Source: Stichopus chloronotus (taxonomy: Eukaryota; Echinodermata; Holothuroidea; Aspidochirotida; Stichopodidae). From it: a stretch of DNA of 64,000 bases. Shown piece by piece: positions 5,262 through 53,455 of the stretch (positions are counted from its first letter, which is position 1; each line of letters opens with the position of its first letter). The stretch lies in NCBI GenBank assembly GCA_021234535.1, contig CM037843.1, positions 11,741,979 to 11,805,978 on the forward strand, read 5' to 3'. The notes beneath the pieces were generated by a model that saw only the letters and a list, made by a program, of their open reading frames with translations, did not search any database and had not been told where the DNA came from. A program made the translations under genes and the position numbers.

Positions 5262-5860
5262 CCCTACCTTGTAAAAGCGATATCTCAAAAAGGGAAGCTT
5301 AAACAGATCTCATATTTGGTATGTAGGTGTACCATATTGATAAGAAGAACCTTATCGTTTTTGGTGGAGGTCAAAGGTCATTTGGGGTCAACAGGGGTCA
5401 AATTGTGAAAACCTTGTAAACACGATATCTCAAGAAGCAAAGCTTGGACAAATCTCATAGTTGGTTTGTCGGTATACCACATTAAGTAGAAGGACCCTAT
5501 TGTTTTTGGTGGAGGTCAAAGGTCATTTGGGGTCAACAGGGGTCAAATTGTGAAAATTTTGTAAATACAATATTTCAAGAAGGGAAGCTTGAACAAATGT
5601 CACATTTAGTGCGTTGGTGTACCACATTGAGTGCAACATCCGTATTGATTCTGGTGGAGGTCAAAGGTCATTTGAGGTCAACAGGGGTCAGACTGTCAAA
5701 ACCTTGTAAACACAATATCTCAAGAAGGGAAACTTGGACAGATGTCATATGAAGTATGTACTTGTATCTTATCGAGTACAAGAACGCTATTTTTTTTAAA
5801 TGGCGGTCAACGGTCATTTGAGGTCAACAAGGTTCAAAGTGTGAAAACTTTGTAAATAAA
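5262..5860 (+). repeat. tandem 145-bp monomers, 4 copies
   Basis: Monomer starts are marked by CCTTGTAAA-type sequence at 5,267, 5,412, 5,557, 5,702 and 5,848, a period of 145 bp. Each monomer runs GATATCTCAAGAAGG, AAGCTTGGACAGAT, TATGTAGGTGTACC, then GGTGGAGGTCAAAGGTCA and more half-sites. A (TG)n/(TATG)n microsatellite at 5,218-5,252 marks the outer edge, as at 21,520 and 26,240. No protein is encoded. Confidence 0.9.
5658..5690 (+). promoter_or_regulatory. cluster of four nuclear-receptor half-sites (DR1-DR4-DR4)
   Basis: AGGTCA (5,658-5,663), one spacer base, AGGTCA (5,665-5,670), TTTG, AGGTCA (5,675-5,680), ACAG, GGGTCA (5,685-5,690). A direct repeat with 1-bp spacing is the known site for RXR heterodimers, HNF4 and COUP-TF; 4-bp spacing is the TR/LXR type. 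The match is seen directly; binding or activity is inference. The same cluster recurs in most monomers of the window. Confidence 0.5.
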
Positions 5861-5869
5861 CTGTGTGGT

Positions 5870-7730
5870 ATACGTGGGCATGGCATTGACACCTACAGTA
5901 TCAAAATTAACAGCTAACAAGTATACCAAACATACCAGGTGTACCCGGAAAAATGGATAATACGTCGTAAAAAGTAAAGCCGTGTGAAGAAACCAATTGA
6001 TACCCCTCGCTTCTCAAGTTAGTCGATCAGAGAGTATGTAACTGAACTGTACGTAATTGGAATAGTCCGTGATTGGGGGTTACAGAAAATTCCAAGACAA
6101 CTTCTTCAAGTTGTGTACGCAAAAGTTGTGCACCTTACAGGGCACATGAACACAAACTAGCATTTTAGTAAAAAGAAAAAAAAACACGGTGACAATGGAA
6201 CATCAAAATAAGTAGCAATGTATGTCAGACAAAAAAACAAAAGCAAAGTGCGAGACAGAGGAGCATCCGAAGTACCGTACACCTACCTAGAAAAACAGTT
6301 GAAAGGCCGATATGGCTACTTCCCACCATATTAGAAACGTCACAATAGCAAAAACAGGAGTGAATTGCATGCATGTTTCTATTTCGTTACTACAAATTGG
6401 AAAACATTCGTCTTGATGAAACGTGGAGTAACATTTTCCCCGTAATTCCCGCCAAAAAGAGACCTTAGTTGTATAAGCGGGGGAAAAAAAATTGCTAAAT
6501 AAGGTTTTCACCCACAGTTTTGAGCCCATCTCTGTATACCATCTCCCTATACTGAGTCAGTTGCACAACCTGTCTGTTTCGTTAACGTTGCATAGAATGA
6601 TAGATTCGTCTCAAGTACATACTGCCCATGTAAGTTGCTGACATATACGTACAGTACACATACAGTACATCGCGTATGCAAGGCAGTACGGCCGGAACAG
6701 GGAGTAAATATTGTCAAATAGCAACTCCCTGGTCGGAACGAATGCCTACCCAACGTTTATTCCAAAGACAACTTTCTGTTGCAAACTGCGAGTGTTATTA
6801 AGGTTTTAGACTCCCTAAAGTAAGAGTTTCTACTCACAAAAACCATGTTGGATCTCACACGCTGTTTTGTTGTCTGTGTACACTTGGTACTGTAGTTACT
6901 CTCATATGTTCAGGATACCAAATCGAATTTCGAAAGTATAAAAAAAAATCTCAATCGGTCAAAACTGCCAAAAACATTTGCATGGCATGTGCATAACACC
7001 CCAAACTAGCAACCCGCATCATTTTCACAAATTTTAATTCGAAGGCTTCCTTCTACGAGATGTTTTCGTTCAGAATGACTTGGGACTTTTGCTGTTGCCT
7101 AACACATATACGTAATACTGAGATAGATCCTAGCCAACACATGTATTACTGGTGCCCTACACTTACTGTACAGGAACAGACTAGACTAAGATTTTCAAGT
7201 AAATTTTTACCCAAACTGTTTGAAAATGTGCTCTATGTTGCCTGATATATTGCTAAGCTTATATTGGGTCATCAGGAACAGGAAAGCATATTTTACACTA
7301 AAACTTTGCACATTAAACTTAAAAAAGAGTGGAGAAAATTTCACCATATATAACAGTGTTACGACAAACCAACACAACTCCAACTCAATGCATTTGAGAC
7401 CAAGCTCTGCTCAGTCATATTGGCTTATAGCCACAGGGATTGGTAAATAATTTACCAGCACTTCCATATAAATGTTAACTTCCTTATATCTTCCTTCCTC
7501 ATCCCTCATCCCTCACCCCCCCCCCCCCCATGTGTTTGGCACTTTATTTCTTCAAGTTAATGGTTGCATATTGACACTCAGTGTATCTCGATTCCTCACT
7601 ATTTTGTTAAAAAGAAAACAAATGCATACTTTTTCAGGGTTGTTACAGAATGTATCAAGTCTTAACTGATTGCAGAGTTAAAGTGATGAAGCGGATATTT
7701 TCCTGCCATTTAGGTATGGAGCAGCCATGT
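5870..7730 (+). repeat. composite repeat, c-b-a segments, forward copy
   Basis: Forward copy of the internal part of the composite repeat. Segment c (5,870-6,540) is inverted at 8,330-9,110; b (6,540-7,070) and a (7,070-7,730) are inverted at 3,600-5,220. The same order is found at 21,970-23,890 and 26,340-28,960. No ORF is conserved across copies, so it looks non-autonomous. Confidence 0.75.
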
Positions 7731-7734
7731 ATAC

Positions 7735-8270
7735 TGATATATGCGTAGTGCTCCTACCAACACAGCTTACTTGTAAACAGTATATTGCAAGAAGATTGGA
7801 CAAATTTCACATTTGGTATGTGAGTGTGTCCAAGCTTCTTACCAGATTCCTGTTGATTTTGGTGGAGGTCACAGGTCATTTGAGGTCAACAGGGGTCAAA
7901 TTGTGAAAATATATAAAATATATACTTCAGCACAATATTTCAAGAAGGAAATCATGGGCAGATCTCCCAATTAGATTGTAGGTTTATCTCATTGAATTTA
8001 CAAAAATTTTCATTTTCTTTAGTGAAGGTCAAAGGTCATTAGCGGTCAACATGGTCGCAGTGTGGAATTCTTGTGAACATATTATCTCATGAAGGGAAGC
8101 TTGGACAGATGTCGTATTCAGTGTGTAGTTGTATCTCATTTAGCACAAGAACGTTAGTCTTTAATGGAGGTGGAAGATCATTCCATGTCAACAAGCATTA
8201 AATTGTGAACATGGAGGTATGATCTCAAGAAAGGAAGCTTGTGTAGATCTCATACTGCATATAAAGCATA
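7735..8270 (+). repeat. 145-bp monomers, about 4 diverged copies
   Basis: Diverged forward monomers with GGAGGTCACAGGTCA (near 7,866) and an exact AGGTCAAAGGTCA near 8,027. Later monomers have lost the half-sites. Confidence 0.75.
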
Positions 8271-8329
8271 CGTAGCTCAATGTGACACAGTATATACTAA
8301 TGCTATTACATCAGATTCCGCAAAAATAT

Positions 8330-9110
8330 TCTTAATCGGATCATCGAAACCGCAATGCATTTCTGCATTCTGGTTTTTTTTCGCTTATATGACTGAGGTT
8401 TCTTTATGGCTACAATTACGCGGCAAAGGTTGCTTCATGTTTTTATCAACACGCATGTTTTCCATTTTGTAGTATTGAAATGAAACCATACATGCAATTC
8501 ACTCCTCTTTTTGTTATTCTCACGTACCTTATATAGTGGCAAGAACAAACATATCGGCCTTTCAAATGTTATTCTAGGTAGGTGTACGGTATTTTGGAAT
8601 ACATCTCGCTCTTTGATTTTGCTTTTTTGTCTGACAAACATTGCTATACTTATCTTGACGTTCCATTGTCGCCAAGTTTTCGTCTTTTTACTAAAATGCT
8701 AATTTGTGTTTGATGTGCCCTGCAAGGTGCACAGCTTTTGTGTACACAACTTGAAGCATGTGTCTTAGAATTTTCAGTAACCCCCAATCACGTACTATTC
8801 CAATTACATACTTCTGACCACAAGGTGTAGCTTCAACAAGTGGTGTACATGTGATTGGCCAATCAAGCAAAAGCCATTGTGTAAAGGTAAGAATATGTTT
8901 GCAGTTCAGTTACGTACTCTCTGATCAACTACCCGAGGAGCCGAACGAGTATCAATTGGTTTCTCCATACGGTTTTACTTTTCAGTATGTATTATCCATT
9001 TTTCGGGGGTATATACTTGATATGTTTGGTGTAACTGTTAGCTGTTAATTTTGATACCATCGGTGAAGGTGTCAATGTCATGCCCACGTACACCAGGTAT
9101 ATTGAAGGGG
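8330..9110 (-). repeat. composite repeat, inverted c segment
   Basis: Reverse complement of 5,870-6,540 and close to 25,010-25,640. Shared landmarks are CGCTTATA, GAATGCAATTCACTCCTC-type words and GTTAGCTGTTAATTTTGATACC. It makes 5.9-9.1 kb a large interrupted palindrome. Confidence 0.75.
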
Positions 9111-9590
9111 GTCATCGTTTTGAAGAATGACGCATCAAAAATCTCCTTTTATAAATGATTTTGTTCCTATATTCCAACAACTGAAGTCAATATCAATCGA
9201 TATATCACTTTTCCGAGTAGGTTTTGATGACACTTTGGTATATCAAATGCTTGCATGGAGGTATATCTGATGCAGCGTGCGAAAAAGCCAAGTCTTCGTT
9301 TTGTAAAATGAACATAATGTTACTATTCCTTCTATTTCATAGGAGAATAAAGTCAGTAACACTGTGTTGCTTTAAGGGAAAAATGACGAGTGTCCGCGTT
9401 GAAAATTGTGTGGAGATTAATACGCGAGCATATGGCTTGGGGTGGGATGGGTTAGCAATAAAAAAGGGGTCTTCGTTTTGAAGACTGACGTGTATGAAAT
9501 CGCCTTTTGAAATGATTTTATTTTTCTTCTCCAGCAACTGAAGTCGTAATGAATCGATGTATCACTTCTTCCGAGTAGGTAACTAACAAT
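9106..9590 (+). repeat. direct repeat pair, ~120 bp, offset ~357 bp
   Basis: The stretch beginning TCGTTTTGAAGAATGACG near 9,113 recurs near 9,470 as TCGTTTTGAAGACTGACG. Both continue with TGATTTT, CAACTGAAGTC, AATCGAT and TATCACTT, and end in TTCCGAGTAGG. Confidence 0.65.
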
Positions 9591-10780
9591 TCAGTCCATT
9601 GTTACATTATATTGATGTAAAGATGGAATTTTACAATGCTATTCTTAACCTTAATAAACTTGTAATAATTCGGCTTTTTTCTTCTGTCAAACTTGTTAAC
9701 CCGAGTCTCCGTCCCCCCCCCCCAATCACTAGAATTATTTAAGAAAATTCGGTCTGGACTTGTACAACCCCCCCCCTCCTTCATAAAGGGGAAACATGTT
9801 TTTCTCTTTCAACCCTACGAATTGATGTTAGCCATAACGACCCGCTATAGACTCCCCCAGACAAGACCAAATCTGCACCTAAACTTTACTTTTAGCCATC
9901 CCCCCCCCCCCCCATTTTAAACACAGGCAATCGTCTAGTTGCAACGTTAGAATACTTCCAAGATAAAAGAAGCCACAGTAGCCTGCACTGAGTTTCAATT
10001 TAAAAAAAAAATATTATCAACCAGTTTGTTGCTTTTTGTTTGAATAAATGTCACTCAAAGAACAGTATCCAACTGGATTTACATATATCAGGAGAAATCC
10101 ACCCAAAATATATTTGGGTGTATTTTACAATGCTTTTGATAACCTTTCGTAACTTGTATTACTTGTATATGTAATATATGTATACAGTATATGAATGGGG
10201 AAATCATTCCTCTAAATCCTTAGTGACGGTGTTTTTTTTTCTTCCCCCCCCCCCCATATACTGATGCACTTTGTTTGGACAATCACGCACCACTTAAACA
10301 CTCTTTCTGTTGTATTACTCTCGTGGGACATGAAGTTATGTAACATTGTAGCACCTTACAATCGACGCTGTAAAGCTTGTTGTCTGCCGTTGTTCATAAC
10401 ACTTCGTGTTCCGTTATTTGTGATCTGGTATACCCTGCCTCCACGAAGCGTGCTACCTCCTCCAAATTTATACGTTTACGTGGCCTGCCTGCAGCCATTT
10501 CGCTTCATTTAAATTACTGCAATGTATTTTGAAATACTCACATGACAAATGTAGACCGAGAACATGACCCGTAAAAACCCTATCGGGAATTTTATAACCT
10601 TTATATCTCGGTATGTTTACTGCAGGGTCAGTAAAACCGTCCGACATTTAATTTATCCTTGGTATCCGGGCACGTAACTCTGCTTCGACCAGGACATATC
10701 TCATCACTTTATTACGTAATCGAACAGGCACTGTCAGACAATATTTTTTGCGTGCATATGTCTCACCTGCTTGTGTACCT
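9591..10780. other. non-coding with poly-C runs
   Basis: No gene recognised. Long C-runs lie near 9,713, 9,768, 9,901 and 10,244. Short open stretches have no family features. Confidence 0.5.
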
Positions 10781-10799
10781 CAATTTCCGTTTGTATAAC

Positions 10800-11390
10800 G
10801 ATTTTGCTTGCTTACTTCGACTTCCTGTGGTTTATTTGTGTCTAATGAATTCGTTTGTACATAATGATTTGGTTTGTGTCCAATGATTTGGTTGTGTCTA
10901 ATGCTTTCGTTTATCTGTGATGATGGTTTGTGTCTACTGTTTTCGTTTGTGTAATGATTTGGTTTGTGTCCAATGTTTCGTTTGTGTCTTATGATTTGGT
11001 TGTGTCTAATGTTTCCTTTGTGTCAAATGATTTTGTTTGTGTGTAATGAATTCATTTTGTGTCTAATCATTTGGTTGTATCTAATGTTTTCGTTTGTGTC
11101 TAATCATTTGGTTGTGTATAATGGTTCGTTTGTGTCTACTGATTTGGTTTGTCTAATGTTTTCGTTGTGGGTAATGATTTGGTTGTGTCTAATGTTTTCG
11201 TTTGTGTCTAATAATTTGGTTGTGTCTAATGTTTTCGTTTGTGTCTAATTATTTGGTTGTGTCTAATGGTCCGTTTGTGTCCACTGATTTGGTTTGTCTA
11301 ATGTTTTCGTTTGTGCGTCATGATTTGGGTGTGTCTAATGTTTCGTTTGTGTTTACTATTGTCTTTTGTCTACCGTTTCGTTAAAAAAAC
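10800..11390 (+). repeat. minisatellite, ~37-bp unit of two half-units
   Basis: Alternating half-units of 18-19 bp, GTGTCTAATGTTTTCGTTT and GTGTCTAATAATTTGGTT, are repeated with small changes for nearly 600 bp. The clearest array is 11,040-11,350. Apparent hydrophobic open stretches (10,964-11,248 and 11,202-11,384) are translations of the repeat, not genes. Confidence 0.9.
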
Positions 11391-14025: not shown

Positions 14026-14029
14026 GGCC

Positions 14030-14150
14030 CGTTCTCTAAAAATAGCGATGACTTCATTTATTCCTGCCCAGACATCAAAGTAACAAGATTACGAAAAAAT
14101 TGGATCGTTCTCTAAACATAGCGATGACTTTTATTCCCGCCTAGACGCGT
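14030..14150 (+). repeat. short tandem duplication, offset 76 bp
   Basis: CGTTCTCTAAAAATAGCG at 14,030 recurs at 14,106 as CGTTCTCTAAACATAGCG. Both continue GATGACTT, TTATTCC, GCC and AGAC. Confidence 0.8.
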
Positions 14151-14287
14151 TCTTACAAGCGCTTTGAAAATAAGGTGATTACGTCATGAAAAATATGTTA
14201 AGACGTGTCCCAACCTAACATTGCGTCATTGTTTCTATCCATGGCAACACGTAACACGGAGAAATAGCGCCCCCTCACAAAGGTGCC

Positions 14288-21539: not shown

Positions 21540-21960
21540 TATATCCGTGACGCACTACCTTGTAAACGCGATATCTCAAGAAGGGAGGCTTGGGCGGATC
21601 CCATATTTGGTATGTAGGTGTACCACATTGAGTAGAAGAAGCCTATTTTTTTGGTGGAGGTCAAAGGTCATTTGGGGTCAACAGGGGTCAGATTGTGAAA
21701 ACCTTGTAAACACAATATTTCACATTGAGTACAACATCCTTATTGATTCTGGTGGAGGTCAAAGGTCATTTAAGGTCGACAGGGGTCAAGTTGTGAAAAC
21801 CGTAAACACAATATCTCAAGAAAACAAGCTTGGACAGATGTCATATGAAGTATGTAGGTGTATCTTACAGAGTACAAGAACGCTATTGTTTTTAATGGAG
21901 GTCAACGGTCATTTGAGGTCAACAAGGGTTAAAGTGCGTAAACCTTGTAAATAAACTGTG
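21540..21960 (+). repeat. 145-bp half-site monomers, about 3 copies
   Basis: Exact AGGTCAAAGGTCA sites lie near 21,658 and 21,757. (TGTG/TATG)n microsatellites at 21,296-21,330 and 21,518-21,541 mark the edge, followed by CCGTGACGCACTACCTTGTAAA as at 5,254. The 217-residue open stretch across 21,301-21,954 is translated repeat. Confidence 0.85.
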
Positions 21961-25640: not shown

Positions 25641-26237
25641 TATTTACAAGGTTTTCCCACTTTGACCCTTGTTGACCTCAAATGACCGTTGACCTCCATA
25701 AAAAACAATAGTGTTCTTGTATTCTATAAGATACACCTACATACTTCATATGACATCTGTCCAAGCTTCCCTTCTTGAAATACTGTTTACAAGGTTTTCA
25801 CAACTTGACCCCTGCTGACCTTAAATAACCTTTGACCTCCACCAGAATCAATAAGAATGTTGTACTCAATGTGGTACACCAACACACTGAATATGACATT
25901 TGTCCCAGACGCTCTTCTTGAAAAATTTTTGTGAGGTTTTCATAATTTGACCACTGTTGACCCCAAATGACCTTTGACCTAAAGTAAAGACAATAGGGTA
26001 TTTCAACTCAATGTGGTACACCTACATACCAAGTATGAGGTTTGTCCAAGCTGTGTTTCTTGAGATATCGTGTTTACAAGGTTTTCACAATTTGACCCGT
26101 TGACCCCACATGACCTTTGACCTCCGTAAAAAACAATAGGGTTCTTCTACTTAACGTAGTAAACCTACATACCAAATATGAGATCTGTCCAAGCTTCTTT
26201 TCTTGAGATATCGTGTTTACAAGGTAGGGCATCACGG

Positions 26238-29879: not shown

Positions 29880-30290
29880 TATAAGGATATATAGGCCTAC
29901 TTTTGCTCCTACAGACGGAGCTTACTTGTAAACATTGTATCTCACATTTGGTATACATGTATCACATCGATTGCAAGATTCCTGATGATTTTGGTGGAGG
30001 TCAAAGGTCATTTGAGGTGAATGAGTCAAATTGTGAAAATATTGTAAACACAGTATTTCAAGAAAGTAAACTTGGGCAGAGTTTACTTTCTTGAAATACT
30101 GTGTTTACAATATTTTCACAATTTGACCCATTCTCTCATTGAGTATACGAAAATTTCCATTGTCTTTAGTAAAGTTCATTTGCGGTCAACAGGGTCACAG
30201 TATGGAATTCTTGTAAACATCTCATCTGAATGAGGGAACCTTGTACAGATATGTCATATTCATTATGTAGTATCATTAAAAACATAACCG
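29880..30290 (+). repeat. 145-bp half-site monomers, partly inverted
   Basis: A forward monomer has an exact AGGTCAAAGGTCA near 29,998. At 30,025-30,127 the array turns back on itself as a perfect hairpin. Diverged forward monomers follow to about 30,290. Confidence 0.75.
30025..30127. repeat. perfect 47-bp inverted repeat with 9-nt loop
   Basis: The left arm 30,025-30,071 (GTCAAATTGTGAAAATATTG…) is exactly the reverse complement of the right arm 30,081-30,127, with loop TTGGGCAGA. It is made of 145-bp monomer sequence. The lack of any mismatch suggests a recent event, ongoing conversion or an assembly fold-back artefact. Confidence 0.95.
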
Positions 30291-30383
30291 TCATTTCGTT
30301 TCTGGTTTGTAATATTCTTCATTGTAGCATTCAACAGTTTTATTCAGTATAGCATTCAAAAGCTTTTATTATAACCTTCCACC

Positions 30384-33788: not shown

Positions 33789-33950
33789 TGTTAAACCTGT
33801 AACCCTTTCATGAAGAGCGCCACCGGAACTGGCAATGCATTTTGTTCTGCGTGTTTATGTTTTTGTCGTGGTGAAGATAACTCACACGTGAGAATAAACT
33901 GCCAGGAAGAAAATCCAGCCAAATCTCGGCGTTTGTATTTTAGTTTCTCA
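33789..33950 (+). repeat. copia 5' LTR, 162 bp
   Basis: Starts TGTTAAACCTGTAACC and ends TTTAGTTTCTCA. About 90% identical by eye to the 3' LTR at 41,886-42,048. Confidence 0.95.
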
Positions 33951-34690: not shown

Positions 34691-35106
34691 GCCAGACGCA
34701 CCCTGATTTGTTCCGTTATTTTCTGTTAGTATCCTCTCCATCCTTTAGTTTTCACGCATCCATTTAGGCAAATGGTGCTTTTCAGATGTTTCTTTTTATG
34801 CTGTCAATACTTTCATTGGTTTCCTAGGTTTCTGAAGGATCTTTTTTTTTGTGATTTTCCATTGCCTCTTTTGTGCCTCATTCCTGGTCTAGCTTCTTCA
34901 TAGATCTTGTGTTGGTACCAGCTCTGCAAGACTTTCCACGTGTCAGTGTTGCTTGTACAGTTACAGTTACTGTAGTTGACTATCGAACGACTGCATCCAG
35001 TATACAGTACTGCTCTCTGAAATCCGGTGAGACCTTTCCTTTTTGTTACATGCCTAGCCTAAATTAGGCTTCTTAGGAGTTCTTCGTATTACTCTATGCA
35101 TCCCAT

Positions 35107-35880
35107 GTGTATAGTATGCCACACAGATCTGCTTTGAGATCCAGCATACAGTTAGTGTGCTTCCTTTCCACTGTCATAATACTCACTTACATTAAGCCTA
35201 ATGTTAGGGTAATAAAAAATGATGCAGTGCCAATGTTCAAATTAACAATGGCTTTTGCAAGCATGAAGCATAGGTCTGGCTACCATCTGCTAGTGCACAC
35301 CAACTGTAACAGGGAAGCAAGTAAAACGTATCTACTTCTGTTCCTCCTGTTGGCAGGAGATATAGCCACCAACCCAGGGCCTACACAACTAAAATCTGTG
35401 TACCCATGTGGCATTTGTGAATATCCGGTGACTTGGTCCACAGATGGCGTATGCTGTGATGAATGTAGCTTATGGCATCATCGTTCCTGTATTGAAATGT
35501 GAATTGCCAACTATAATCTGCTACATAGGAGTAATGTCCAATGGTTGTGTTATAAATGTAACAGCATTAATGTGGACAGTTTTACCTATCTTAGCTTTCA
35601 TCTCAAATCCTCTAACTCTTTTAGTGTTTTGAGTGACTTATATCAAGATTCAAATTGTACGCTACCGTCAATTGATGAGTATGCAGATTGTGTACCCAAG
35701 TTTTCAAGTACACCTAAGTCATGTCATACACCGTCACAAATTAGTAATAGTAGTTCTGACCACTCAATAGGCTTTGGCATACCACAAAAATCAAATCTGA
35801 GATTGATGACTCTCAATTGTAGAAGTATCGCAGGTAAGGCTGCCCAGTTTGCCACTGTAGTGCTAGTACATCACACCTGA
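35107..35880 (+). pseudogene. LINE N-terminal region: 2A-like peptide and PHD-type zinc finger
   Basis: A hydrophobic stretch (TYLLLFLLLA) runs into GDIATNPGP (35,356-35,382), a 2A-like ribosome-skipping motif whose usual Glu is replaced by Ala. A C4HC3-type finger follows: CGIC (about 35,409), CCDEC, WHHRSC and, after an in-frame TGA at 35,500-35,502, WLCYKC near 35,538-35,555. The frame then stays open to LRLMTLNCRSIAGK, the start of the endonuclease. A frameshift near 35,865 joins it to the next segment. Confidence 0.75.
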
Positions 35881-41885: not shown

Positions 41886-42048
41886 TGTTAAACCTGTAAC
41901 CCTTTCATGAAGAGCGCCACTGGAAGTGGCAATTGCTTTAAGTTCTGTGTGTTTATGTTTTTGTCGTGGTGAAGATAACTCACACGTGAGAACAAACTGC
42001 CAGGAAGAAAATCCAGTCAAATCTCGGCGTTTGTATTTTAGTTTCTCA
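41886..42048 (+). repeat. copia 3' LTR, 163 bp
   Basis: Near-identical partner of 33,789-33,950, followed by CTGCA. A T-rich and then A-rich tract, (AAAT)n at about 41,830-41,875, precedes it instead of a clean polypurine tract. Confidence 0.95.
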
Positions 42049-42290: not shown

Positions 42291-42719
42291 ACATACCAGT
42301 GCTGTAGTGGAGACCACACTATCCGAGTCAAAACCAAGTCCAACAAATCCGAGTCCATATCGAGTCACAGAGACCAGAAGAAATGCAATTTTCGTAATTA
42401 CTATTTTACTAGCATACATATTTTTTCACATATAGAGGCAGATACTCAGTACAGCTCCATAATAACAGACAGGAAATGTCTAAACTATATCACCTTCCAA
42501 ATCATGCAGTGCCATGTAGGGTACTACATATATACGAAGGCTGTTACAAATTAGCAAATAAGAGGATGGTTAAAATGTGTGAATGCCTTCTGACCATTGC
42601 TGTAGATGTCCTAGCTAAGAAAGACAACCAGAAAGTCTAAAGACTTTGTGATTCCTTGCCCATATTCATTAAGGATAACCCACATACAGTACAAATATTG
42701 AATCAAATACTGTAAAGCC

Positions 42720-44310
42720 TACTTTCCCAAAAGGATTCTCAGGGATATAATGTAAACAAGGTTTCACAGTTTGAACTCTCATGACCCCAAATGACCTCTG
42801 ACCTCCACCAAAAAACAACAGGGATCATCTACACACTAAGTATGAGATCAGTCAAGGTTACCGATAGTTTGACCTCTGGCCCTATTTAAGGCAACCCCTG
42901 GTGGCCTCAAATGACCTTTGACCTCCACAAACAACAATACGGATCATCTACCCAGTATGACTAAGTATGAGATCAGTCAAATGTACCCATCTTGAGATAT
43001 CACGTGAACAACCTTTTCACAGTTTGACATTTGGTAACCTGAAATGACATTTGACTTCCACCGACCAAAACTAATAGAGACCATCTACGCAGTATGAACT
43101 ACGAACACACCAAGTATGAGATCAGCGAAGGTTACCCATCTTGAGATATCGTGTAAACAAGGTTTTCACAGTTTGACCTTCGGTAACCTCAAATGACCTT
43201 TGAACTCCACCAAAACAATAGAGATTATCTATCCAGAATGACCAACCTTCACATGAAGTATGAGATCAGTCAAGGTTGTCCTTCTTGAGATATAGTGTAA
43301 ACAAGGTTTTAACAGTTTGACCTTTGGTGAACTCACATGACCTTTGACCTCAGACAAAAACAATAGGGTCATTTAATCAGACCAATCCATGCACCAAGTA
43401 TGAGATCTGTCGAGGTTATCCTTCTTGAGATATTGTGTAAACAGGGTTTTCACAGTTTGACCTCCAGTGACCTCAAATGATGTTTGACCTCCAACAAATA
43501 CAATAGGGATCATCTCCACAGTAGGAACAACGAACACACCAAGTATGAGATCAGAAGGTTACATAATCTTGGGATAACGTGTAAACAAACTTTTCAGTTT
43601 GACCTCTGGTGACCTCAGATGGTCTTTGATCTCCACCAAAAACAATAGGATCATCTACTCAGTATCAAAAAGCACCAAACTACGTATGAAAATAGCCACT
43701 GTTACCCATCCTGAGATATGGTGTAAACAAGGTTTTCACACTTTGACGTCTGGTGACCTGAAATGACCTTTGACCTCCACCAAAAACAATAGGGATCATC
43801 TATGCAATATGAACAACTCACACACTAAGTATGAGATCAGTCAATGTTACCCTCCTTGAAATATTGCATAAACAAGGTTTTCATAGTTTGACCTTTGCTG
43901 ACCTCAAATGACCTTTGACCTCCACCAAAAGCAATAGGGATCATCTACACAGTATGATCAACCAGCACACCAAGTATGAGATCAGCCACTGTTACCCTAC
44001 TTGAGATATCACGTAAACAAGGTTTTCTTAGTTTGACCTCTGGTGACCTCAAATGACCTTTGACCTCCATTAAAAACAATAGGGATCATCTACTCACTTT
44101 GATAAACCTGCACACCAAGTATGAGAACAGTCAATGTTACCCTACTTGAGATATCGCGTAAACAAGGTTTTCACAGTTTGACCTCTGGTGATCTCGAATG
44201 ACCTTTGATCTCCACCAAAATAATAGGAATCATCTACGCAGCATGACCAACCCGCACACCAAGTATGAGATCAATCAAGGTTACCCTTCTTGAGATATTG
44301 CGTAAACAAG
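42720..44310 (-). repeat. tandem 145-bp half-site monomers, about 11 copies
   Basis: The largest array. Monomer markers CTTGAGATAT recur every 143-146 bp (about 43,141, 43,286, 43,423, 43,568, 43,711, 43,855, 44,000, 44,146 and 44,290). Exact TGACCTTTGACCT sites lie near 42,912, 43,339, 43,763, 43,908 and 44,053; others have one or two changes. It ends in a CA-rich tract and the hairpin at 44,357-44,385. Confidence 0.9.
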
Positions 44311-44980
44311 CAGTGTCACACACACATATGCACACACACAGGCACACGACATCACCGATTCCTTGCTTGCCTTTGGCAAGGAATCAATAAATCAATCAGT
44401 GACAGCGTCTATGGTTGATGCCACATTTGGTAAAAATGCTGTTTGTATGCCATTAGTAATGCAACATTTTCTCCCATTTATTATTTTGCTGTCACATTTG
44501 GATAGGTATAACCAGAGTCAGCTCTAGGCCAAATTTGACATTGATACTGACCTCCTGTACATTACATAACTCAGACACTGTGTTACACATTCAACAGTGA
44601 AGTCTGTGTATGAAAGCATTGATAGGAATTTTTCACTGTGAGACCTTCTCTTTCCCCTGATGAAAAACATGTCTGGTGCACATTCAAGTTGAGGTAATTA
44701 TGATTATTTCAACAGAGGAGATTCAGCCACACTTAGCCAGCTGTATATCTAGATATAAGGATATTTGTAGAATCTTTTTAAAAAAGCATGCAAATACTAG
44801 TTAACACTTGTTACACAACCAGGGATGAATAGCAGTATTAGGCATCTATACCTCCTAATTTATGAGAAACCACATGTAACTTTCAAAAATACTACCCAGT
44901 AACACATACATGCTCTGGTGCTACTGTCAAATGAATGTTCCCAGCTGTTGTGTCCCTTCAATCACCATTACAATGAGCAT
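44311..44980. other. interior of hAT-like element, no gene
   Basis: A hairpin with 10-bp arms GATTCCTTGC (44,357-44,366) and GCAAGGAATC (44,376-44,385), then AT-rich DNA with no coding signal. Confidence 0.6.
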
Positions 44981-45199
44981 CATATTTTTGCGGTCTTGGG
45001 TCCAAGACCTTGAGTCATACCACTGGAGAAAGAGACCAAGATTGAGCCATTTCTGTTCGAGCCCAAGACTGGGCAATCCGAGACCAAAACGGTGGGGCAA
45101 GACTGGACTCGAGACCCGAACTGTTCGCAGTGACTCAACACTGATACATACCTGGTACGGAACTTATTCGAGCTTTTGTAGCTTTTGCACACTTTTTGG

Positions 45200-46300
45200 A
45201 GTGTAACCTCTGATGGCCTTTGATGCGTACAGGAAATAGAGTTCTTCCTCTCAAAATGGGGTATCTATTACTCAAAATTGAGAACTACCTGTTTCCCTTT
45301 CTTGAGATATTGTGTTAACAATAAAAGCATCATAGACACACACGCATGACCACATAGGTTTTTTCCCACTGAAAGTAAAAAACTGACACACACACATCAG
45401 AAAGCTCAAAGGCATTGTGGTTTCGATAAATGTATTGAGTCAAAATTGCAATGTTACAACAACTATGCACACAACATCATCTGCTACCAAAAGATAATGA
45501 GTGGTAGGTAGGTTTATCATAACTCAATATGCACACCTACATATGTACTAAATGAGAGGTATGTCCAAGATCCCTGTCGATGGAATTCTATGTGCACATG
45601 CATAGTGCTAAAAGATTCATCCCAGACATAATCTATGCATTTACAATCAATATTACACTTGCCTCTATTCTTCACATAAAAAAATATGACATCAGGACAA
45701 GCCTACCTCTCTTGTGGTAACATGTTTACAAGGTTTTCCCTATTCGACTCCTGTTGACCCCAAATGATCTTTGATCTCTGTCACAAACAATAGCCTTTAG
45801 TTACCCAAAAGGGTACATTTACAAACCAAATATGAGATCTGTCCAAGCTAGTCATCTTGGGATATCATGTTTACAATGTTTGCACTATTTGACTGCATTT
45901 GACTCCTAAATGACCTTTCATGTCAATCTAAAACAGAATGTTACTTGTACTTGATACACCTACTTTTCAAATAAGAAACTTTTTCAGACTCCTCTTGATG
46001 AAATATCATGTTTACAACATTTTCACAAATTATCTGACACTACTGATTCAATCCCAAATGACCCTTGACCTCCACCAGAAACAACAGAGTCCTTGCACTT
46101 AATGTGGTGCACCTATTTACGTAAAAGGAATCTTTCCAAAGTTTCCATCTTGAAATTTTGAGTGTACAAGGTTTTCACTATTTGACCCCTGTTGACCTTT
46201 GACCTCCACCAAAAAATACATTTTTTGTACCTAATAAGGTACATCTTTGAACCAAATATGAGATATCATCCATGTTTCTACTCTTGAGATAGCATGTGTC
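45200..46300 (-). repeat. diverged 145-bp monomers, about 6, interrupted
   Basis: One monomer at 45,200-45,330, then unrelated DNA, then about four monomers at 45,700-46,300 with an exact TGACCTTTGACCT near 46,192. Each ends in CA-rich tracts. Confidence 0.7.
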
Positions 46301-47450
46301 ACAAACACATATGCAGTGCACACACATACCCCTACATAGACATACCAAGAATGATATTGATCTGAGCTACATTGAAATATTGTTTAGAATCATGGTGTCA
46401 CACATACACACACCGTACACGCCATCTTGATTAGCTTAACATTTCATGGAAACCAGCTATAATCATACCTATTACAGTGTTCAATTTACACTAGAGCACC
46501 AATGGTGCAGAAGCTCATACCTCAACACCCCTAATGAACGTACCGTTTGCGTCACTATACCAAATTATCAACAGTATACAAGGGAATCTGTACAGTAGGA
46601 CAGCACAAGTTTCAGAAACAAGAGCAACATCCATGCAGAAGTTTGATCTTTTATCTTTGATATATTTGTGACAATTTTGATAGGTACTCCCAAATAACAA
46701 TGCTTATAATTAGCATCACTATTTACATGCAATGATTATGAAAACTCAATTTTTATTTTTTGTCCATGGTTTGTACTGGCTGTGGACATATGAATTAGTA
46801 CTAATGTGGAAAAACAAATATTAATAAGTTTCTAAATCCAATTTAAATCTTTAACAACTTTCACATTAGTGGTTATTTGTATGTGACACGTGGAAAAGCT
46901 CTTAGTTTGACCATCCATCTGTCACCAGAAGACTTACATACGTCATGCTTCACGCAAACTGACCTAAAAGATAGATTTGTTACTTTGTGATCAATAAAAG
47001 TGGGGATAATAATGTAGTTATCAACTCTTTTACCCCCTAATCATCATTTAGATCAGCTAGTGAGATAGAAACTAGGGCACCAATTGGTGCAGAAGCTCAT
47101 ACCGCAACATCCTGAAGGTACCATTTATGTATCACTATGTCACATAATAGGTATCACTGAGTATCACTCTACCAAATCATCAACACTGTACAAGAAAATC
47201 TGTAGGACTGCACAATTTTTCAGAATTTCATAAACAAAATTGCAGAACGTTGATCTTTTAGACTAACTGAAGTTCATGAAACAATTCAAAGTGCCCCTTT
47301 AAGTCCAAATACTGGTCAAAATACCTGAGGGCAATACAGAGTTTCAGTTAGCATAGCAACTGACACTGTCCAATTACTCAATTATCATTCATGCACGATA
47401 GGGATATTTGAGATGTGTATGACAGTTTAAAGGGGCACTTTAACAGTAGA
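46301..47450. other. non-coding with a diverged direct duplication
   Basis: 46,495-46,610 and 47,075-47,215 share GCACCAAT(T)GGTGCAGAAGCTCATACC, the word CAACA.CCTG-type, TACCAAAT.ATCAACA and GTACAAG. Both begin with a GCACCAATTGGTGC-type palindrome. No gene. Confidence 0.55.
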
Positions 47451-48060
47451 AAAAGAGGTAATTTGCAGAATCCCATAAAATGGGCCATTGGGCCCACAAG
47501 GGGGTCTTGGACTACCAATTCCTGAACACCCTGAAGGGACCAATAACTGAGCATCATTGTGACAAACCATCAACACTGTACAATATAATCTGTAGGAGAA
47601 GGGGCATTTTGTAGAATTTCATAAAATGGACCATTGGGTCCACATGGGACCTTAAACTGAAACTTTTTTGTACACCCCAGATGAAGCACCACCCAGGGAT
47701 TATTGTGTCCAAGCTAAATATAAATCCATGGATGCATGTGTGAGAAGCAACATTTCAAACAGAATTTCACATAATGGGTCATTGGGCCCACATGGGACCT
47801 TGGACCAAAAATTCCTGAACACCCCAAAGGAACCACTACCAGAGTATTATTATGACACACCATCAACACTGTACAAGAGTATCTGTAGGAGGAGAAGCAT
47901 TTTGTAGAATTTCATAAAATGGGCCACAGAGCCCACATGTGACCTTGGACCAAAATTCTTGAACACCCCAAATAGCCCACTACCTAGGGGACATTATGTC
48001 CGAGTTTCAAACAAATCCATGAAAGCATGTGGGAGGAGAAGCATTTTGAACAAGTGTGGA
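47450..48060 (+). repeat. second tandem family, ~146-bp period, 4 copies
   Basis: The marker TGGGCCATTGGGCCCACA-type lies at 47,481, 47,627, 47,775 and 47,920 (spacing 146, 148, 145). Each unit continues CTTGGAC, TTCCTGAACACCCC, CATCAACACTGTACAA and TCTGTAGGAG. Its sequence is unrelated to the half-site monomer. The open stretch at 47,668-47,907 is translated repeat. It ends in a GATAGATAGCTA microsatellite. Confidence 0.85.
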
Positions 48061-48105
48061 CAGATAGCTAGATAGATAGCTAGATAGACGCTGTGTGATA
48101 ACAAA

Positions 48106-48133
48106 AGCTCATACCAGCATGCTGGTATGAGCT
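48106..48133. repeat. perfect 28-bp palindrome
   Basis: AGCTCATACCAGCA followed by its exact reverse complement, no loop. It lies just after the tandem array. The half AGCTCATACC also opens the duplicated stretches at 46,513 and 47,093. Confidence 0.95.
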
Positions 48134-49060
48134 AAAAATAAAGTGAAGCTCACAGGCTTGGGAGTGTGCAATATAAAACACAAAAAAGTTTCTTAGTTGA
48201 AAAGCACTAAAATTTGACAGCAAGCTTTCCCAACATAGAAAATGCTCTCCACGTATGACTACAATCATGATGGCAATTCTATATGAAGCAATACCATTGA
48301 ATAATAAACTTTTTATTCCAGACAGCTTCGAGTACAAAATCTGTCATCTTCGCTTCTGTTATGGTTAGTTGTGGTCCTGACATGAACTGTAATATTAATG
48401 TTATGTTTTGCTGTCAAAAGATCACACAAAAGTGAAAACTTCAGCTGGAATCCACAAATTTGGACAGAGGGAATAGTATGACTGAATGATTGCCAAGATA
48501 TCAATTCAGTGATATGAGGATCACATTTCTAATTGTGAAAATGATCAATTTTCTGTTTTAGATGTTGCTAATGTTACTATTTGTAATGTCCATTACACTT
48601 TCAAGTGTAACATTAGCACATAATAAATGCATTCTACTGGAGAAATGTACAGTATTCATTCACTTTCATGGTCAAGTTATAGCATCTATTTGTATGAAGC
48701 TAGTATAATGGCTAACATCCATAACCTGTCTCCTCACCTGCATAGGAATGGTTGGCTCTCAAGAATATTTAACGTCTAGAACACAGTAACATTAGCACGC
48801 ATTTTTTTTCCAATTTTCTTTATCATAACCATTATTGGACACATCATATTTACATTTTGTCAGAAACCTTGCTCCTGCTGAACTTGTAAGGCATATGAAG
48901 TACAAATTTGTTTCCTATGCACATTAGGGTATGCCAAATGTTTGACACTGTGTGCTTATGTTACTAATATTACTATTGACAGCCCTGTATAGGACTTTAA
49001 CGCTAACACTAACACATTTCAATTTCATCTGGACAAAGGAAATGCACAAGGAAACATCTT
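48134..49060. other. non-coding, no gene recognised
   Basis: AT-rich, with no domain or repeat identified on either strand. Confidence 0.45.
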
Positions 49061-49067
49061 CTTTTTG

Positions 49068-49191
49068 AAACCAAATAAATGAGCAAAAAGAGACAAGAAA
49101 GAAGAGGAAGATGTGGAATCTTTGAAAATTTACGCATTTCAAAATGCCTCTCAAGAACTTTCTTGTCTGCATTTGCTCATTTATTTGGTTT
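49068..49191. repeat. 34-bp inverted repeat, 56-nt loop
   Basis: The left arm 49,068-49,101 (AAACCAAATAAATGAGCAAA…GACAAGAAAG) pairs with 49,158-49,191 with about three mismatches. Confidence 0.8.
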
Positions 49192-49945
49192 TACAACTGT
49201 ACAACTCTTCCAAAGTTATATCTCCTTTTTAACTTTTTAATTGGCAATTGGGGGCTGATGCCTCCAAACTAAGGGAACTTAAAGCATATTGGAAATTTTT
49301 ATTTCTTCTCCACTGCAGAAACAATTTGGTTTGTTATTGTGAAAGATGTTATATGTGAAGTTAATTTGACACAAAGCTGACAAGTTTGGGAAAAATTGAG
49401 TCTGAACTTCACTTACAGTGCCTCTTTAATGTCTCCATATACACCAATTGCCTCAGGGGAAGAACAGAGTTTCAGTTAGTACACCAACTGACACTGCACA
49501 ATTACTCAATAATCATCCATGCACCATAGAGGTATTTGAGGTATTTAACATTTACAAGCTGCACTGTATAAGTAAAGACATTTTGCAGAATTTCAAAAAA
49601 TGGGCCACACTCTGAGGATTTTGAGTATTTATGAAACAATAACAAGTCAACGAACTGTTGGGATTTACAATCATAATTTATTTTCAGTTTCATGCAAAAT
49701 TACTTTGTCTCAAAGGTCTGCTGATTAAAAAATGTAACAGATAAAATAGAACATCCTAATACAACAGCCAAAGAAAAAAAACCTGCCGTGCAGTTATCTC
49801 GAACTCAAAAGTGAGTATACATGAAGTACACACAGTGAAGTTTAACCTGAAGTTATTAATTGGTAAAAGGGTACTGTCATTTGCAACAGTGTATGCAGCT
49901 CCGAACGTTACAACTAAGGGTCTGTAGTTGATTGTGCATCTTTTG
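49192..49945. other. non-coding; stray piece of second tandem family
   Basis: A fragment (TTTTGCAGAATTTCAAAAAATGGGCC) near 49,581 belongs to the 47,450 family. Also CAGTTAG.ACACCAACTGACACTG, seen near 47,343 as well. No gene. Confidence 0.5.
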
Positions 49946-49949
49946 TTTT

Positions 49950-50900
49950 CACACTAGCTTGAAGTGAAATTTGACATCCATAAACCAGAAAACCAAAACT
50001 TTGTGATTTCTTGCCATATGGGTATATTGTAAGAAACATAAATCACCCACATGACATGTATGACATAAATTGCAATTCTTCTACTTGAAACACTATGTTA
50101 AGAAGCTTTTGAGCTTTGAAATATGTTGACTCAAAATGACATTTTACTTCCTCATGAAACAATATATGCTAATATCTATAGACATCATCTATTCAATATG
50201 GGCATCAAAACATGTCCAGTATGAGATCCCTCACAGTTACAGTACCCTTCTTATAATAGTGTGTTAACAACATTCTGACTTGTGGTGACCTAAAATGACC
50301 TTTGACTAAAACTACTGGATTGGAACAACAGACATGCAAAGTAACGTGATTCATCACAGTTTCTCATCTTGAGATAAAGGTGTTTATATGGTTTTGAACT
50401 TTAGAACTCTGGCAACCCAAAATCACTATTGACCTCCACCAGAAAGAATAAAGATCATCTCTTCAATATGAACAATCCATATGCTGGGTATGAAATTCTC
50501 TGACTTCCTTTCTCTGAGATTCTCTCACTTTCTTTTCTTAGAAGGATCTCTCATGAGATCATTGACACTTACCTTTTTTGGATATATTGTATTTACAAAG
50601 TTTTTACAGTGTGACCTCTGTTGACCCCAAATGACCATTCACCTCCATCAAACAACAACAGGGTTCTTCTACACAATGTGGTACACCAACATACCAAATA
50701 TGAGATCTGGTCCAGCTTCCATTCTTGAGATTAGGGTTTACAAGGTTGTCAAAATTTGACAACTGTTGACCCCAAACGACCTTTGACCTCCACCAAAATG
50801 GTAGGGTACTTCTACTTAATGTGGTAGACCTACATACCAAATATGACATTTGTCCAAGCTTCTCTTCTTGAAAAATCATGTTTAAAATTTAGGGCGTCAT
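49950..50900 (-). repeat. diverged 145-bp monomers, about 6
   Basis: Monomer landmarks (TTTGACCTCCACC, CATACCAAATATGAGATCT, TTGTCCAAGCTTC) are present. The best-preserved two are at 50,600-50,890, with CGACCTTTGACCT near 50,779. Confidence 0.75.
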
Positions 50901-51149
50901 TGACATGCATACATGCAAACACACACGCCATCATGATCACATAGGTTTTCTCTTTATGATTGAAACTAAAGATTGACAGCAACTATTTACTCATCAAGAA
51001 CTAATCATTTTTTTAGTTTGAAGTTCAAGCAACGTTCCTTTTCAGGTATCATGCCTCTTGATTATAAAAGTTATGATTATCACCAGAAAGCCCAAAGGAC
51101 ATTGTGGCTTTGATGATTCAATTATGAGTATTTTGAATCTGGCATATTG

Positions 51150-51975
51150 CATGTAAGGAGGACATGTTGACCCCAAATGATTTTACACTTCTAAGAACAT
51201 CAACAGGACACTTGCACCCAGTAAGGTGGATCTGAAAATCAAATACAAGATCCGTCCAAGCTTTTCTTAATGTTTACAAGGTTTTCACAACTTGACCCCA
51301 ACTGACCGTTGGCCTCAGCGGGAAGCAGTAGGCTAATTTTACTCAATAAGGTACAGCTTCAAACTCCATATTAGTTGTGTAGATGCCTCCCTTCTTGCAA
51401 TATCATGTTCATAATATTTTAACAATTTGACCCTTTTTGCCCCAATGTGACCTTTGACCTCCCCCACAATCAATAGGGTTCTTCTACTTGATGTAATGCA
51501 CTCACAACCTACATATCAAAAGTTTCCATAATTCCTACCTTGAGACATTGTGCTGACAAGAGTTTCAGTGTTTGACCTCTGGTGATCTCAGATGACTTTT
51601 GACCTCCACCAAAGACAATAAGGTTCTTACTCTCAATATGACCAATGCGCAAACTAAGTATGTTCTTGAGGTATTGTGTTAACAAGATTTTCAGTGTTTG
51701 ACCTCTGGTGACCTCAGATGACCTTTGATCTCCACCATAAACAATAGCATTCTTCCTCTTGACATGACCAACCCACAAACTAAGTACATGAAGTATCCAT
51801 CATTTACATCTTGAGATACTGTGTTAACAAGATTTTCAGTGTTTGACCTCTGGTGACCTCAGATGACCTGTGACCTCCAGCTTAAACAATAGGGTTCTTA
51901 ATCTTAATATGGGGCATCTATGTATCAAGTTTGAAAAATGCCCAAGTTTTCATTCTTGAGATATTGTGATAAAAA
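51150..51975 (-). repeat. diverged 145-bp monomers, about 5-6
   Basis: An exact TGACCTTTGACCT near 51,450, variants in the others, with GAGATA.TGTG.TAACAAG joints near 51,540, 51,670, 51,815 and 51,958. A (CA)n tract follows. Confidence 0.75.
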
Positions 51976-52845
51976 ACTGGGCATCACAAACACACACACA
52001 ATCACGATTGCATATGTTTCTTTTTTCATCGAAACCAACAAAACCAACCAGAAAAGTCAATGACTTTGTGATTCCTTGCCAATATCTCATTTTATCATAC
52101 ACACATAATCACTTACAAACAAAAGCAACCCAGTGGAGAAGCGAAGGGACCATATCAAAATGAAAAACAAAATGCAAGAATGATAACCACATTCTGTCTT
52201 ATGGGTTTGATGTTAAGTGCTAATATGACTGAGTAATGTCATTCACTCAGCACTGATGACAATTGTGGTCACAAAGGAGCTCAGTAATTCACAAGTTTGT
52301 GACACCAAATTGTGGTTACAGACCTGAGACTATGCAAGTCAACAAAGCCTCCCGAGGGAGTGGACTAAAACATCAAAGCACTTTGTAATCTTGACGGGGA
52401 GTTTCTGGCAATACAGATATTCTCTGAATGCTTAGAAAAAGTGATAAGAGCTATGGTATGTGGTTGTTTGGCATAGAAGATGGCATAATGTTCCTCAAAT
52501 TGAAAGACAATGAGAACAAAGTCTATCTAGCTGAAACCTCTGCTATGAAACATAGACCAACATTCTGGTAAATTTCAACAGGGAATAAATATGCATTATT
52601 TTCCTAATGTGAGTAACTTAACCGCTTTATATGTCGAGCATTCAGGACACACAAAACTATGTATCGCATGTTGGGCTTTTGAACCCAGGACAGATCTTTG
52701 AAATGACAGAACTTATTACAATCATTTCATGGCATATTACAGTGATGACAGGTCTCCTATGGGGCAATTCAAATGACAGACATCAGCTGCTCATCAAGTG
52801 CTAACAATGTTGACACCTTGAAGTTCTACCTGAATTCACACAAGT
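51976..52845. other. non-coding, no gene recognised
   Basis: Begins with CATCGAAACCAACAAAACC and TGTGATTCCTTGCC, words that often border the arrays. The rest shows no gene. Confidence 0.45.
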
Positions 52846-53455
52846 TTGAAGTTCAAGCACCTTTCCCTTCTCGAGAAACTGTGTATTGAAGGTTTTCTCA
52901 CTGCGTCTTCTACTGATGTCGCACGACCTTTGACCTCCATAAAAAATGACAGACATCATCTACTCATTAGGTGCTACCAATGGTTAGTTCAACCAACATT
53001 TAGTTGCAGAAATATCTCCCCCAATAGGTTTCTTAATTTAAGCTCTGGTGACCTCAAATGACCTTTGACCTCCATGACAAACATTGGGGATCATATACTT
53101 GCAGTGAACTACCAACAAACCAACTTCGAAGTTCAAGCACCTTTCCCTTCTGGAGATACTGTGTTTACAAGGTTTTTGAACAATGTCCTCTATTGACCTT
53201 ACATGACCTTTGACTTCCACAAAAAATGGCAGACATCATCTTCTCATTAGTTGCTACCAATGATAAGGGTTTGAAGTTCTAACAACATTCGGTTGCTGCG
53301 ATATCTCCCTTGATTGGTTTTCGACGTCAAATGACCTTTCACCTCCAAGAAAAACAATATGACTCATCTTCTCATGATGGACTACCAACACACCAACTTT
53401 GAAGTTCGAGCACCGTTCCCTCCTTGAGATATTGTGTTTACAAGCCGTCACATAC
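52846..53455 (-). repeat. diverged monomer variant, about 4 copies
   Basis: An exact TGACCTTTGACCT near 53,058. The variant contains TTCAAGCACCTTTCCCTTCT and GAAGTTC words at about 52,850, 53,130 and 53,400, giving a two-monomer (~275 bp) higher-order spacing. Confidence 0.7.

What the first reader, a model, noticed from the sequence alone, without database searches (positions are those of the whole stretch)
5262..53455. Recurrent DR1-DR4-DR4 nuclear-receptor site clusters inside a mobile tandem repeat
Most 145-bp monomers contain AGGTCA-A-AGGTCA, then TTTG, then (A/G)GGTCA, ACAG and GGGTCA. At least 15 sites match the 13-bp DR1 exactly on one strand or the other (for example 5,368, 5,658, 21,658, 26,109, 43,763, 44,053 and 53,058). 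The half-sites are among the best-kept parts of diverged monomers. A repeat family spreading clustered receptor sites would parallel primate Alu elements with their DR2 sites, and could wire many loci to RXR/HNF4/COUP-type receptors. Binding is inference.
Basis: partly seen in the sequence, partly recalled or inferred. Interest (0 to 1): 0.8.

Follow-up and report, generated by a model that had tools for sequence, protein, structure and literature searches.

The report
Mobile repeat with conserved receptor motif
A family of mobile DNA elements, probably from a sea cucumber, carries tandem 145-base repeats whose slowest-changing part is a textbook binding site for hormone-type nuclear receptors; the site is really there and unusually well kept, but whether any receptor binds it is untested.

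Summary
The window has 18 exact AGGTCA-A-AGGTCA sites (0 in 100 shuffles), all inside monomers of one ~145-bp repeat, as are all 31 exact RGGTCA-N4-RGGTCA pairs. DR1 is the slowest stretch of the monomer: on trees that leave out the tested columns it is below all 95 non-overlapping windows, 10-fold on internal branches (0.005 v mean 0.049), 1.6-fold on terminal ones (0.072 v 0.112). The DR4 part is weaker: half-sites 3 and 4 change little less than average and their spacing is not protected. The 43-kb array sits in a HINE (non-autonomous Helentron), a second element nearly so; for most arrays, including those at 5, 21 and 26 kb, complete HINE ends were not found. Every named protein hit listed is from the sea cucumber Holothuria leucospilota. 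Three of 20 primer pairs for its differentially expressed coelomocyte genes lie in this monomer, so the family is transcribed. Constraint mainly on propagating lineages suggests that DR1 serves the element (inference). Genome-wide counts could not be run (tool unanswered nine times). Binding, open chromatin and species are untested.

The parts
5266..5856 (+). 145-bp array, 4 monomers; exact DR1 at 5368, 5513, 5658
5221..5253 (+). TG/TATG microsatellite just before the array, followed by TCCGTGACGCCCT
7770..8256 (+). diverged array; exact DR1 at 8026
21557..21951 (+). array in a second copy of the 5.2-kb element; exact DR1 at 21658, 21756
25643..26225 (-). array in a third copy; exact DR1 at 25968, 26111
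29939..30305 (+). diverged monomers; exact DR1 at 29998
42744..44310 (-). longest array, central repeats of HINE E1; exact DR1 at 42912, 43338, 43764, 43909, 44054
44376..44387 (-). 5' subTIR of HINE E1 (within the 12-bp TGATTCCTTGCC that is inverted at the 3' end); complementary inverted repeat at 44355-44366
42642..42659 (-). 3' subTIR of HINE E1 (GCAAGGAATCACAAAGTC), running into stem-loop AAAGTCTTTAGACTTT at 42632-42647
45204..46297 (-). diverged monomers; exact DR1 at 46193
50115..51972 (-). diverged arrays; exact DR1 at 51448; 3' subTIR-like GCAAGAAATCACAAAGTT (2 mismatches) at 49997-50014, no 5' subTIR found
52062..53511 (-). E2, HINE-like: 5' subTIR-like 53500-53511 (11 of 12 bases), monomers 52841-53443 with exact DR1 at 53059, 3' subTIR 52062-52079 and stem-loop AAAGTCATTGACTTT
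53530..54801 (-). E5, possible HINE: subTIR-like ends 54790-54801 and 53530-53541 (2 mismatches each, a level at which chance matches occur), two diverged monomers; no exact DR1
56959..57902 (-). E3, possible HINE: subTIR-like ends 57891-57902 (1 mismatch) and 56959-56976 (3 of 18), diverged monomers; no exact DR1

Best explanation
The motif is part of a satellite-like central repeat carried by non-autonomous Helentrons (HINEs), most likely in a holothurian genome; HINE ends are shown for the 43-kb element, nearly so for a second, and the other arrays are taken to be relics or relatives. The element spreads by the rolling-circle machinery of an autonomous partner (inferred from its ends). DR1 is kept because lineages that go on spreading need it: it is most likely a cis-element bound by a host DR1-class nuclear receptor (RXR, COUP-TF, HNF4 or, from recall, TR2/4) or another protein of the same specificity, which makes the element transcribed or accessible in cells where it can transpose. 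After insertion most copies decay. The DR4-spaced half-sites 3 and 4 look like by-products of a short internal repeat (AGGTCAA / AGGTCATTTG / AGGTCAACAG / GGGTCAAATT). Shown: the sites, the anatomy of the 43-kb element, the column rates, the family in H. leucospilota and in its transcripts. Inferred: receptor identity, role in spread, partner transposase, species of the window.
For: 18 exact DR1, all in monomers. On block-out trees DR1 is below all 95 non-overlapping windows, 10-fold on internal and 1.6-fold on terminal branches (the 24 overlapping windows were not compared). Base-matched permutation p=5e-5, the floor of 20,000 draws. Same with a MAFFT alignment, at array-consensus level and in 120 translated relatives (0.862 v 0.645 codon identity, rank 3 of 133). 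HINE anatomy of the 43-kb element, by the definition in passages of PMC4067079 and PMC7492417. Primers of three genes listed as differentially expressed lie in the monomer. [quoted passage not shown]
Against: No binding or chromatin data. DR1 is also the lowest window on terminal branches, so some constraint after insertion is not excluded. In three copies of one element DR1 is not significantly slower than the right flank (2/52 v 57/695, p=0.20; other pairs p=0.12 and 0.21). Of 13 arrays whose flanks were compared, only the 43-kb one gave a subTIR pair of 11 bp or more. HNF4 prefers CAAAGTCCA, and the review calls the perfect consensus unnatural. Other blocks are also fairly well kept (exact consensus 13-mers in 20% at columns 102-114 v 33% for DR1).
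Confidence: 0.4

Rival explanations
1. The DR1-containing block is conserved for transposition, replication or array recombination, not for nuclear receptors: a binding site of the Helentron Rep/helicase or of a recombination protein that happens to look like a DR1.
For: Constraint is strongest on internal branches. In the bivalve BIV160/Cg170 family, which also occurs in Helitron/Helentron elements, two motifs are conserved and junctions group loosely around the longer one, though the authors found no statistical support for that link (passages of PMC5139131).
Against: In this window arrays do not join their left flanks at DR1: 9 of 12 array starts align from columns 108-111 and three from 123, 123 and 129, while DR1 is columns 65-77. 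The exact match to a 13-bp receptor consensus would be coincidence. I recall no Helentron protein with this specificity.
Confidence: 0.3
2. Host co-option: dispersed DR1 arrays act as enhancers for host genes and are kept after insertion, as proposed for Alu elements with DR2 and HNF4 sites.
For: DR1 is the lowest window on terminal branches too (0.072 v 0.112). Monomer sequence occurs in three unigenes listed as differentially expressed in challenged coelomocytes. Precedents with ChIP: PMC1785376 and PMC3252374 (abstracts).
Against: Most of the signal is on internal branches. DR4 spacing is not protected. DR1 does not differ significantly from the right flank between three copies of one element. 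Repeats in transcripts can be UTR or intron passengers. No host gene in the window was tied to an array; none was looked for beyond ten ORFs.
Confidence: 0.15
3. No selection: the block is kept by homogenisation of arrays, subfamily structure or alignment anchoring.
For: Arrays share ancestry; the internal short repeats make the region easy to align.
Against: Homogenisation within an array does not by itself favour one 13-bp block of the same monomer; resampling by array keeps the excess (+0.090, 0.062-0.118); a second aligner gives the same; base composition would predict a faster, not slower, rate (from the per-base rates).
Confidence: 0.1

Closest known systems
HINE / DINE-1 / Cg_HINE (non-autonomous Helentrons with central tandem repeats)
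   Same: In the 43-kb element: subTIR of 12 bp, inverted repeat beside the 5' subTIR, microsatellite, central repeats, 3' subTIR followed by a stem-loop, T-rich surroundings
   Different: The central repeat here has a perfect nuclear-receptor DR1 as its slowest-changing block; 'transcription factor' occurs 0 times in the oyster paper PMC7492417 and the DINE-1 passages seen name no such site. Host is an echinoderm by protein hits.
BIV160 / Cg170 / HindIII satellite family of bivalves and Pearl elements
   Same: Satellite-like monomers shared with Helentron-type elements, two conserved blocks per monomer, arrays next to microsatellites (passages)
   Different: Monomers of about 160-170 bp there, 145 bp here; their sequences were not in the passages seen, so homology was not tested. 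My recollection that mollusc repeats contain TGACCTTTGACC-like blocks is a lead only.
Alu elements with DR2 RAREs and HNF4 sites
   Same: High-copy mobile family spreading nuclear-receptor half-site repeats (abstracts of PMC1785376, and PMC3252374)
   Different: Alu-DR2 arose largely by CpG deamination of a non-consensus motif and has ChIP support; here the site is kept in the propagating lineages, repeated in tandem about every 145 bp, and has no binding data.

Membership tests
HINE (non-autonomous Helentron) | subTIRs, 11 bp or more identical | tested here: met
   Met for E1 only: 12-bp exact TGATTCCTTGCC inverted between its flanks. E2 has 11 of 12 bases. In the 12 other arrays compared no pair of 11 bp or more was found (one 10-bp match at 5.2 kb, none of 9 bp or more in the rest)
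HINE (non-autonomous Helentron) | 3' stem-loop after the 3' subTIR | tested here: met
   7-bp arms in E1 and E2; no perfect palindrome with arms of 6 bp or more in E3, E4, E5
HINE (non-autonomous Helentron) | inverted repeat, microsatellite and central tandem repeats in order | tested here: met
   E1 left flank and array
HINE (non-autonomous Helentron) | insertion at T-rich sites without target-site duplication | tested here: inconclusive
   T-rich flanks visible, no empty site available
HINE (non-autonomous Helentron) | autonomous Rep/helicase partner | not tested
   no Rep/helicase match among the 10 of 28 listed ORFs given to Pfam; genome search unanswered
Nuclear-receptor DR1 response element | consensus AGGTCA-N-AGGTCA with strict spacing | tested here: met
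   18 exact sites; DR1 columns have fewer indels (0.0036 v 0.0080 per column outside the motif)
Nuclear-receptor DR1 response element | constraint on half-sites | tested here: met
Nuclear-receptor DR1 response element | receptor binding and effect on transcription | not testable with these tools
   needs EMSA, CUT&RUN or reporter assays
Nuclear-receptor DR4 response elements | half-sites conserved with protected 4-bp spacing | tested here: not met
   half-sites 3/4 0.123-0.127 v rest 0.147; indels in columns 78-97 0.0124 v 0.0080. Sequence form itself is present: 31 exact RGGTCA-N4-RGGTCA
BIV160/Cg170 satellite family | sequence similarity of monomers and of the two conserved blocks | not testable with these tools
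   reference sequences not in the passages seen

The most novel reading that the evidence does not exclude
A Helentron lineage in sea cucumbers has tapped the host's nuclear-receptor network: its tandem DR1 array is a receptor-driven switch that times the element's transcription and, as a side effect, lays down very many perfect DR1 sites, making many loci (including transcripts that respond to immune challenge in coelomocytes) receptor-responsive.
Probability: 0.15. Interest if true: 0.8.

Novelty: new variant of a known kind. Interest (0 to 1): 0.5.

Why it matters
Central repeats of HINEs and related satellite families have conserved blocks for which the papers seen offer no established function. 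Here the best-kept block is a specific, testable site. If a receptor binds it, that gives a mechanism for how a non-coding rolling-circle element persists, and a natural case of tandem perfect DR1 sites spread through an echinoderm genome. If nothing binds it, the same data point to an unknown sequence need of Helentron propagation.

Tried and rejected
Rejected: array junction at DR1 (9 of 12 arrays start at columns 108-111, the other three at 123, 123, 129). Rejected: a known structured-RNA family (no Rfam match at gathering thresholds). Corrected: a first internal/terminal count used a tree built from the control columns and so favoured the result (terminal 3.46 v 4.46 changes per column, permutation p=0.06; internal 0.23 v 2.28); block-out trees replaced it, with a larger terminal effect and the internal one kept. 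No help: exact DNA patterns of the motif in viral contigs (two patterns, 0 matches) and in prokaryote genomes (one pattern, 0), where eukaryotes are not held. Literature: sequence strings, nuclear receptor with satellite terms (0 papers), transposable elements with receptor sites, sea cucumber Helitrons, Helentrons in echinoderms. Several listings were capped (15 of 3,203, 12 of 68, 15 of 160, 12 of 3,484); what was listed shows no paper on this monomer or on receptor sites in HINE repeats, apart from the primer table of PMC7161275 found. That is all that my view of novelty rests on. Dropped rows: 14 of 64 monomer hits with fewer than 95 aligned columns were left out of the trees; 13 of 64 lacked ungapped DR1 columns in the exact counts; the MAFFT alignment used 50 of 66 hits; minus-strand matches were skipped; the cytokine primers of the table were not tested.
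Full report
Observation. AGGTCAAAGGTCA occurs 18 times exactly in the window and in none of 100 dinucleotide shuffles. All 18, and all 31 exact RGGTCA-N4-RGGTCA pairs, fall in monomer hits of one repeat that cover 7,474 of 64,000 bases; outside them lie 0 exact and 2 one-mismatch DR1s. Of 64 monomer hits, 51 have ungapped DR1 columns: 17 exact, 32 with at most one mismatch; all four half-sites are perfect in 8 of 40. 'Most monomers' is therefore right only with mismatches allowed.

Conservation. An iterated nhmmer model found 64 monomer hits in 17 array groups. Weighted identity is 0.84 in the 24 half-site columns and 0.76 elsewhere (Mann-Whitney p=0.0035; 4 of 143 circular positions of the mask, the true one included, reach the observed value). 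On a tree of 50 of the 64 monomers built without the motif block, changes per sequence are 0.102 (half-sites) and 0.147 (rest); DR1 0.078, half-site 3 0.123, half-site 4 0.127, DR4 spacers 0.156. DR1 ranks 4th of 120 13-column windows, the three lower ones starting 1-3 columns to its right. Resampling arrays as clusters gives an excess identity of 0.090 (0.062-0.118) for half-sites and 0.136 (0.110-0.161) for DR1. Base-matched permutation gives p=5e-5 for both, the floor of 20,000 draws. A MAFFT alignment of 50 monomers gives DR1 0.904 against a mean of 0.743 for non-overlapping windows, the best of which has 0.842. At array-consensus level DR1 is 0.942, half-sites 0.888, rest 0.815.

Where the constraint acts. 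With trees that leave out a 38-column block around each tested 13-column window, DR1 has 0.005 internal and 0.072 terminal changes per column and sequence; the 95 windows that do not overlap it average 0.049 and 0.112, and none is as low on either. The ratio of internal to terminal change is 0.07 for DR1 against a median of 0.43. Lineages that kept spreading kept DR1; single copies lose it at a rate closer to normal. Against a clean reading: the terminal rate is also the lowest, so some constraint after insertion is possible. In three copies of one element (5.2, 21.5 and 26.2 kb), compared in pairs that are not independent, DR1 differs at 2/52, 1/39 and 1/39 sites, the rest of the array at 13-16% and the right flank at 7-9%; DR1 v array p=0.012-0.040, DR1 v flank p=0.12-0.21, not significant.

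DR4 part. Half-sites 3 and 4 are only a little slower than average. Their first base is A or G about equally (A 25, G 20 of 49; G 24, A 19 of 47), as a receptor half-site would allow. But indels in columns 78-97 (0.0124 per column) exceed those outside the motif (0.0080), while DR1 has fewer (0.0036); the whole 33-column motif (0.0090) is not protected, rank 35 of 99 windows. The 7/10/10-bp phasing of AGGTCAA, AGGTCATTTG, AGGTCAACAG, GGGTCAAATT suggests origin from a short internal repeat (inference from the sequence).

The carrier. The 43-kb array sits in an element with a 12-bp subterminal inverted repeat (TGATTCCTTGCC at -76, its complement at +84), a complementary inverted repeat, a TG-rich microsatellite, GTGACAC, the array, and a 3' stem-loop AAAGTCTTTAGACTTT. 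A second element (52.06-53.51 kb) has the same 18-bp 3' end, a stem-loop, and a 5' end with 11 of 12 subTIR bases. The 18-bp 3' end occurs 5 times with up to 3 mismatches against 0.04 expected. Similar end pairs bracket arrays at 53.5-54.8 and 57.0-57.9 kb, but without a perfect 3' palindrome and at mismatch levels where chance matches occur (18 found, 7.4 expected with up to 2 mismatches). Of 13 arrays whose flanks were compared, no other gave a subTIR pair of 11 bp or more; the 5.2, 21.5 and 26.2-kb copies, which hold 7 of the 18 exact DR1s, have the microsatellite and junction but no demonstrated HINE ends. The structures match those given for HINEs in passages of PMC4067079 and PMC7492417. 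Nine of 12 arrays start at monomer columns 108-111, three at 123-129, so most share one ancestral junction, and it is not DR1.

Other genomes. A translated array found six proteins. An alignment of relatives found 186 proteins at E<=0.1 and a second 182 at E<=0.01, 120 listed each time; every listed hit with a source name is from Holothuria leucospilota, the others are unnamed. The highest local identity to the window among 120 of them is 87%, so the window is probably from a holothurian, species unknown (inference). In these 120 proteins, mapped back to the monomer by tblastn on the plus strand, the DR1 window has codon identity 0.862 against a mean of 0.645, rank 3 of 133, the two better windows overlapping it. 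The set was gathered with window-derived words and is not a random sample.

Transcription. In the H. leucospilota coelomocyte mRNA-seq study PMC7161275 (passages seen), 3 of the 20 primer pairs listed for differentially expressed genes have both primers in this monomer (mismatch 0-24%; 800 shuffled primers: minimum 24%, 1% quantile 33%). The weakest of these six primers equals the shuffle minimum, its partner has 10%. The family is therefore in transcripts listed as differentially expressed after immune challenge; which challenge, the direction of change and the nature of these transcripts were not seen.

Judgement. The site is real, better kept than any other stretch of the monomer, and carried at least in part by a HINE. 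That it is the consensus DR1 of RXR, COUP-TF and HNF4 studies (passages of PMC10315846) makes a nuclear receptor the first candidate binder; HNF4 itself prefers another sequence. That it serves the element more than the host is inferred from the branch pattern. Alu-DR2 and Alu-HNF4 (abstracts) are functional precedents, not relatives. Genome-wide counts were not possible: the genome search did not answer in nine tries.

Noticed in passing
primer table of PMC7161275; monomer columns 60-139: Three genes listed as differentially expressed in challenged H. leucospilota coelomocytes have qPCR primers that lie in this repeat, so those qPCR signals may come from many repeat copies and not single genes.
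   Followed up: partly
window 3975-4971 and 6730-7711: About 1-kb inverted arms (80% identical) flank the 5.2-kb array; related arms recur at 22.6-24.8 and 27.3-29.0 kb, so that array also sits in a larger palindromic element.
   Followed up: partly
window 33789-33950 and 41886-42048: 94% identical direct repeats of about 163 bp bracket Copia-type pol ORFs (39.1-41.8 kb) and a LINE-type RT/endonuclease element (35.1-38.6 kb): they look like LTRs of a Copia element with a nested LINE.
   Followed up: no
window 35077-35502: N-terminal ORF before the LINE-type RT contains GDIATNPGP, which looks like a 2A-type ribosome-skipping motif (recalled), followed by a Cys-rich PHD-like stretch (by eye).
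   Followed up: no
window 47462-48048: A different tandem array of period 144-146 with GGGCCATTGGGCCC, not hit by the monomer model although of the same period.
   Followed up: no
window 10828-11352: Minisatellite with 18/36-bp subunits (TTGTGTCTAATGATTTGG) and a higher-order period of 145.
   Followed up: no
window 61378-63781: Two long overlapping ORFs (478 and 359 aa) in different frames, without a Pfam match at E<=0.01, perhaps one broken element protein.
   Followed up: no
monomer columns 70-77: The DR1 contains AAAGGTCA, which I recall as the monomeric NR4A (NBRE) site; exact in 25 of 51 monomers.
   Followed up: partly
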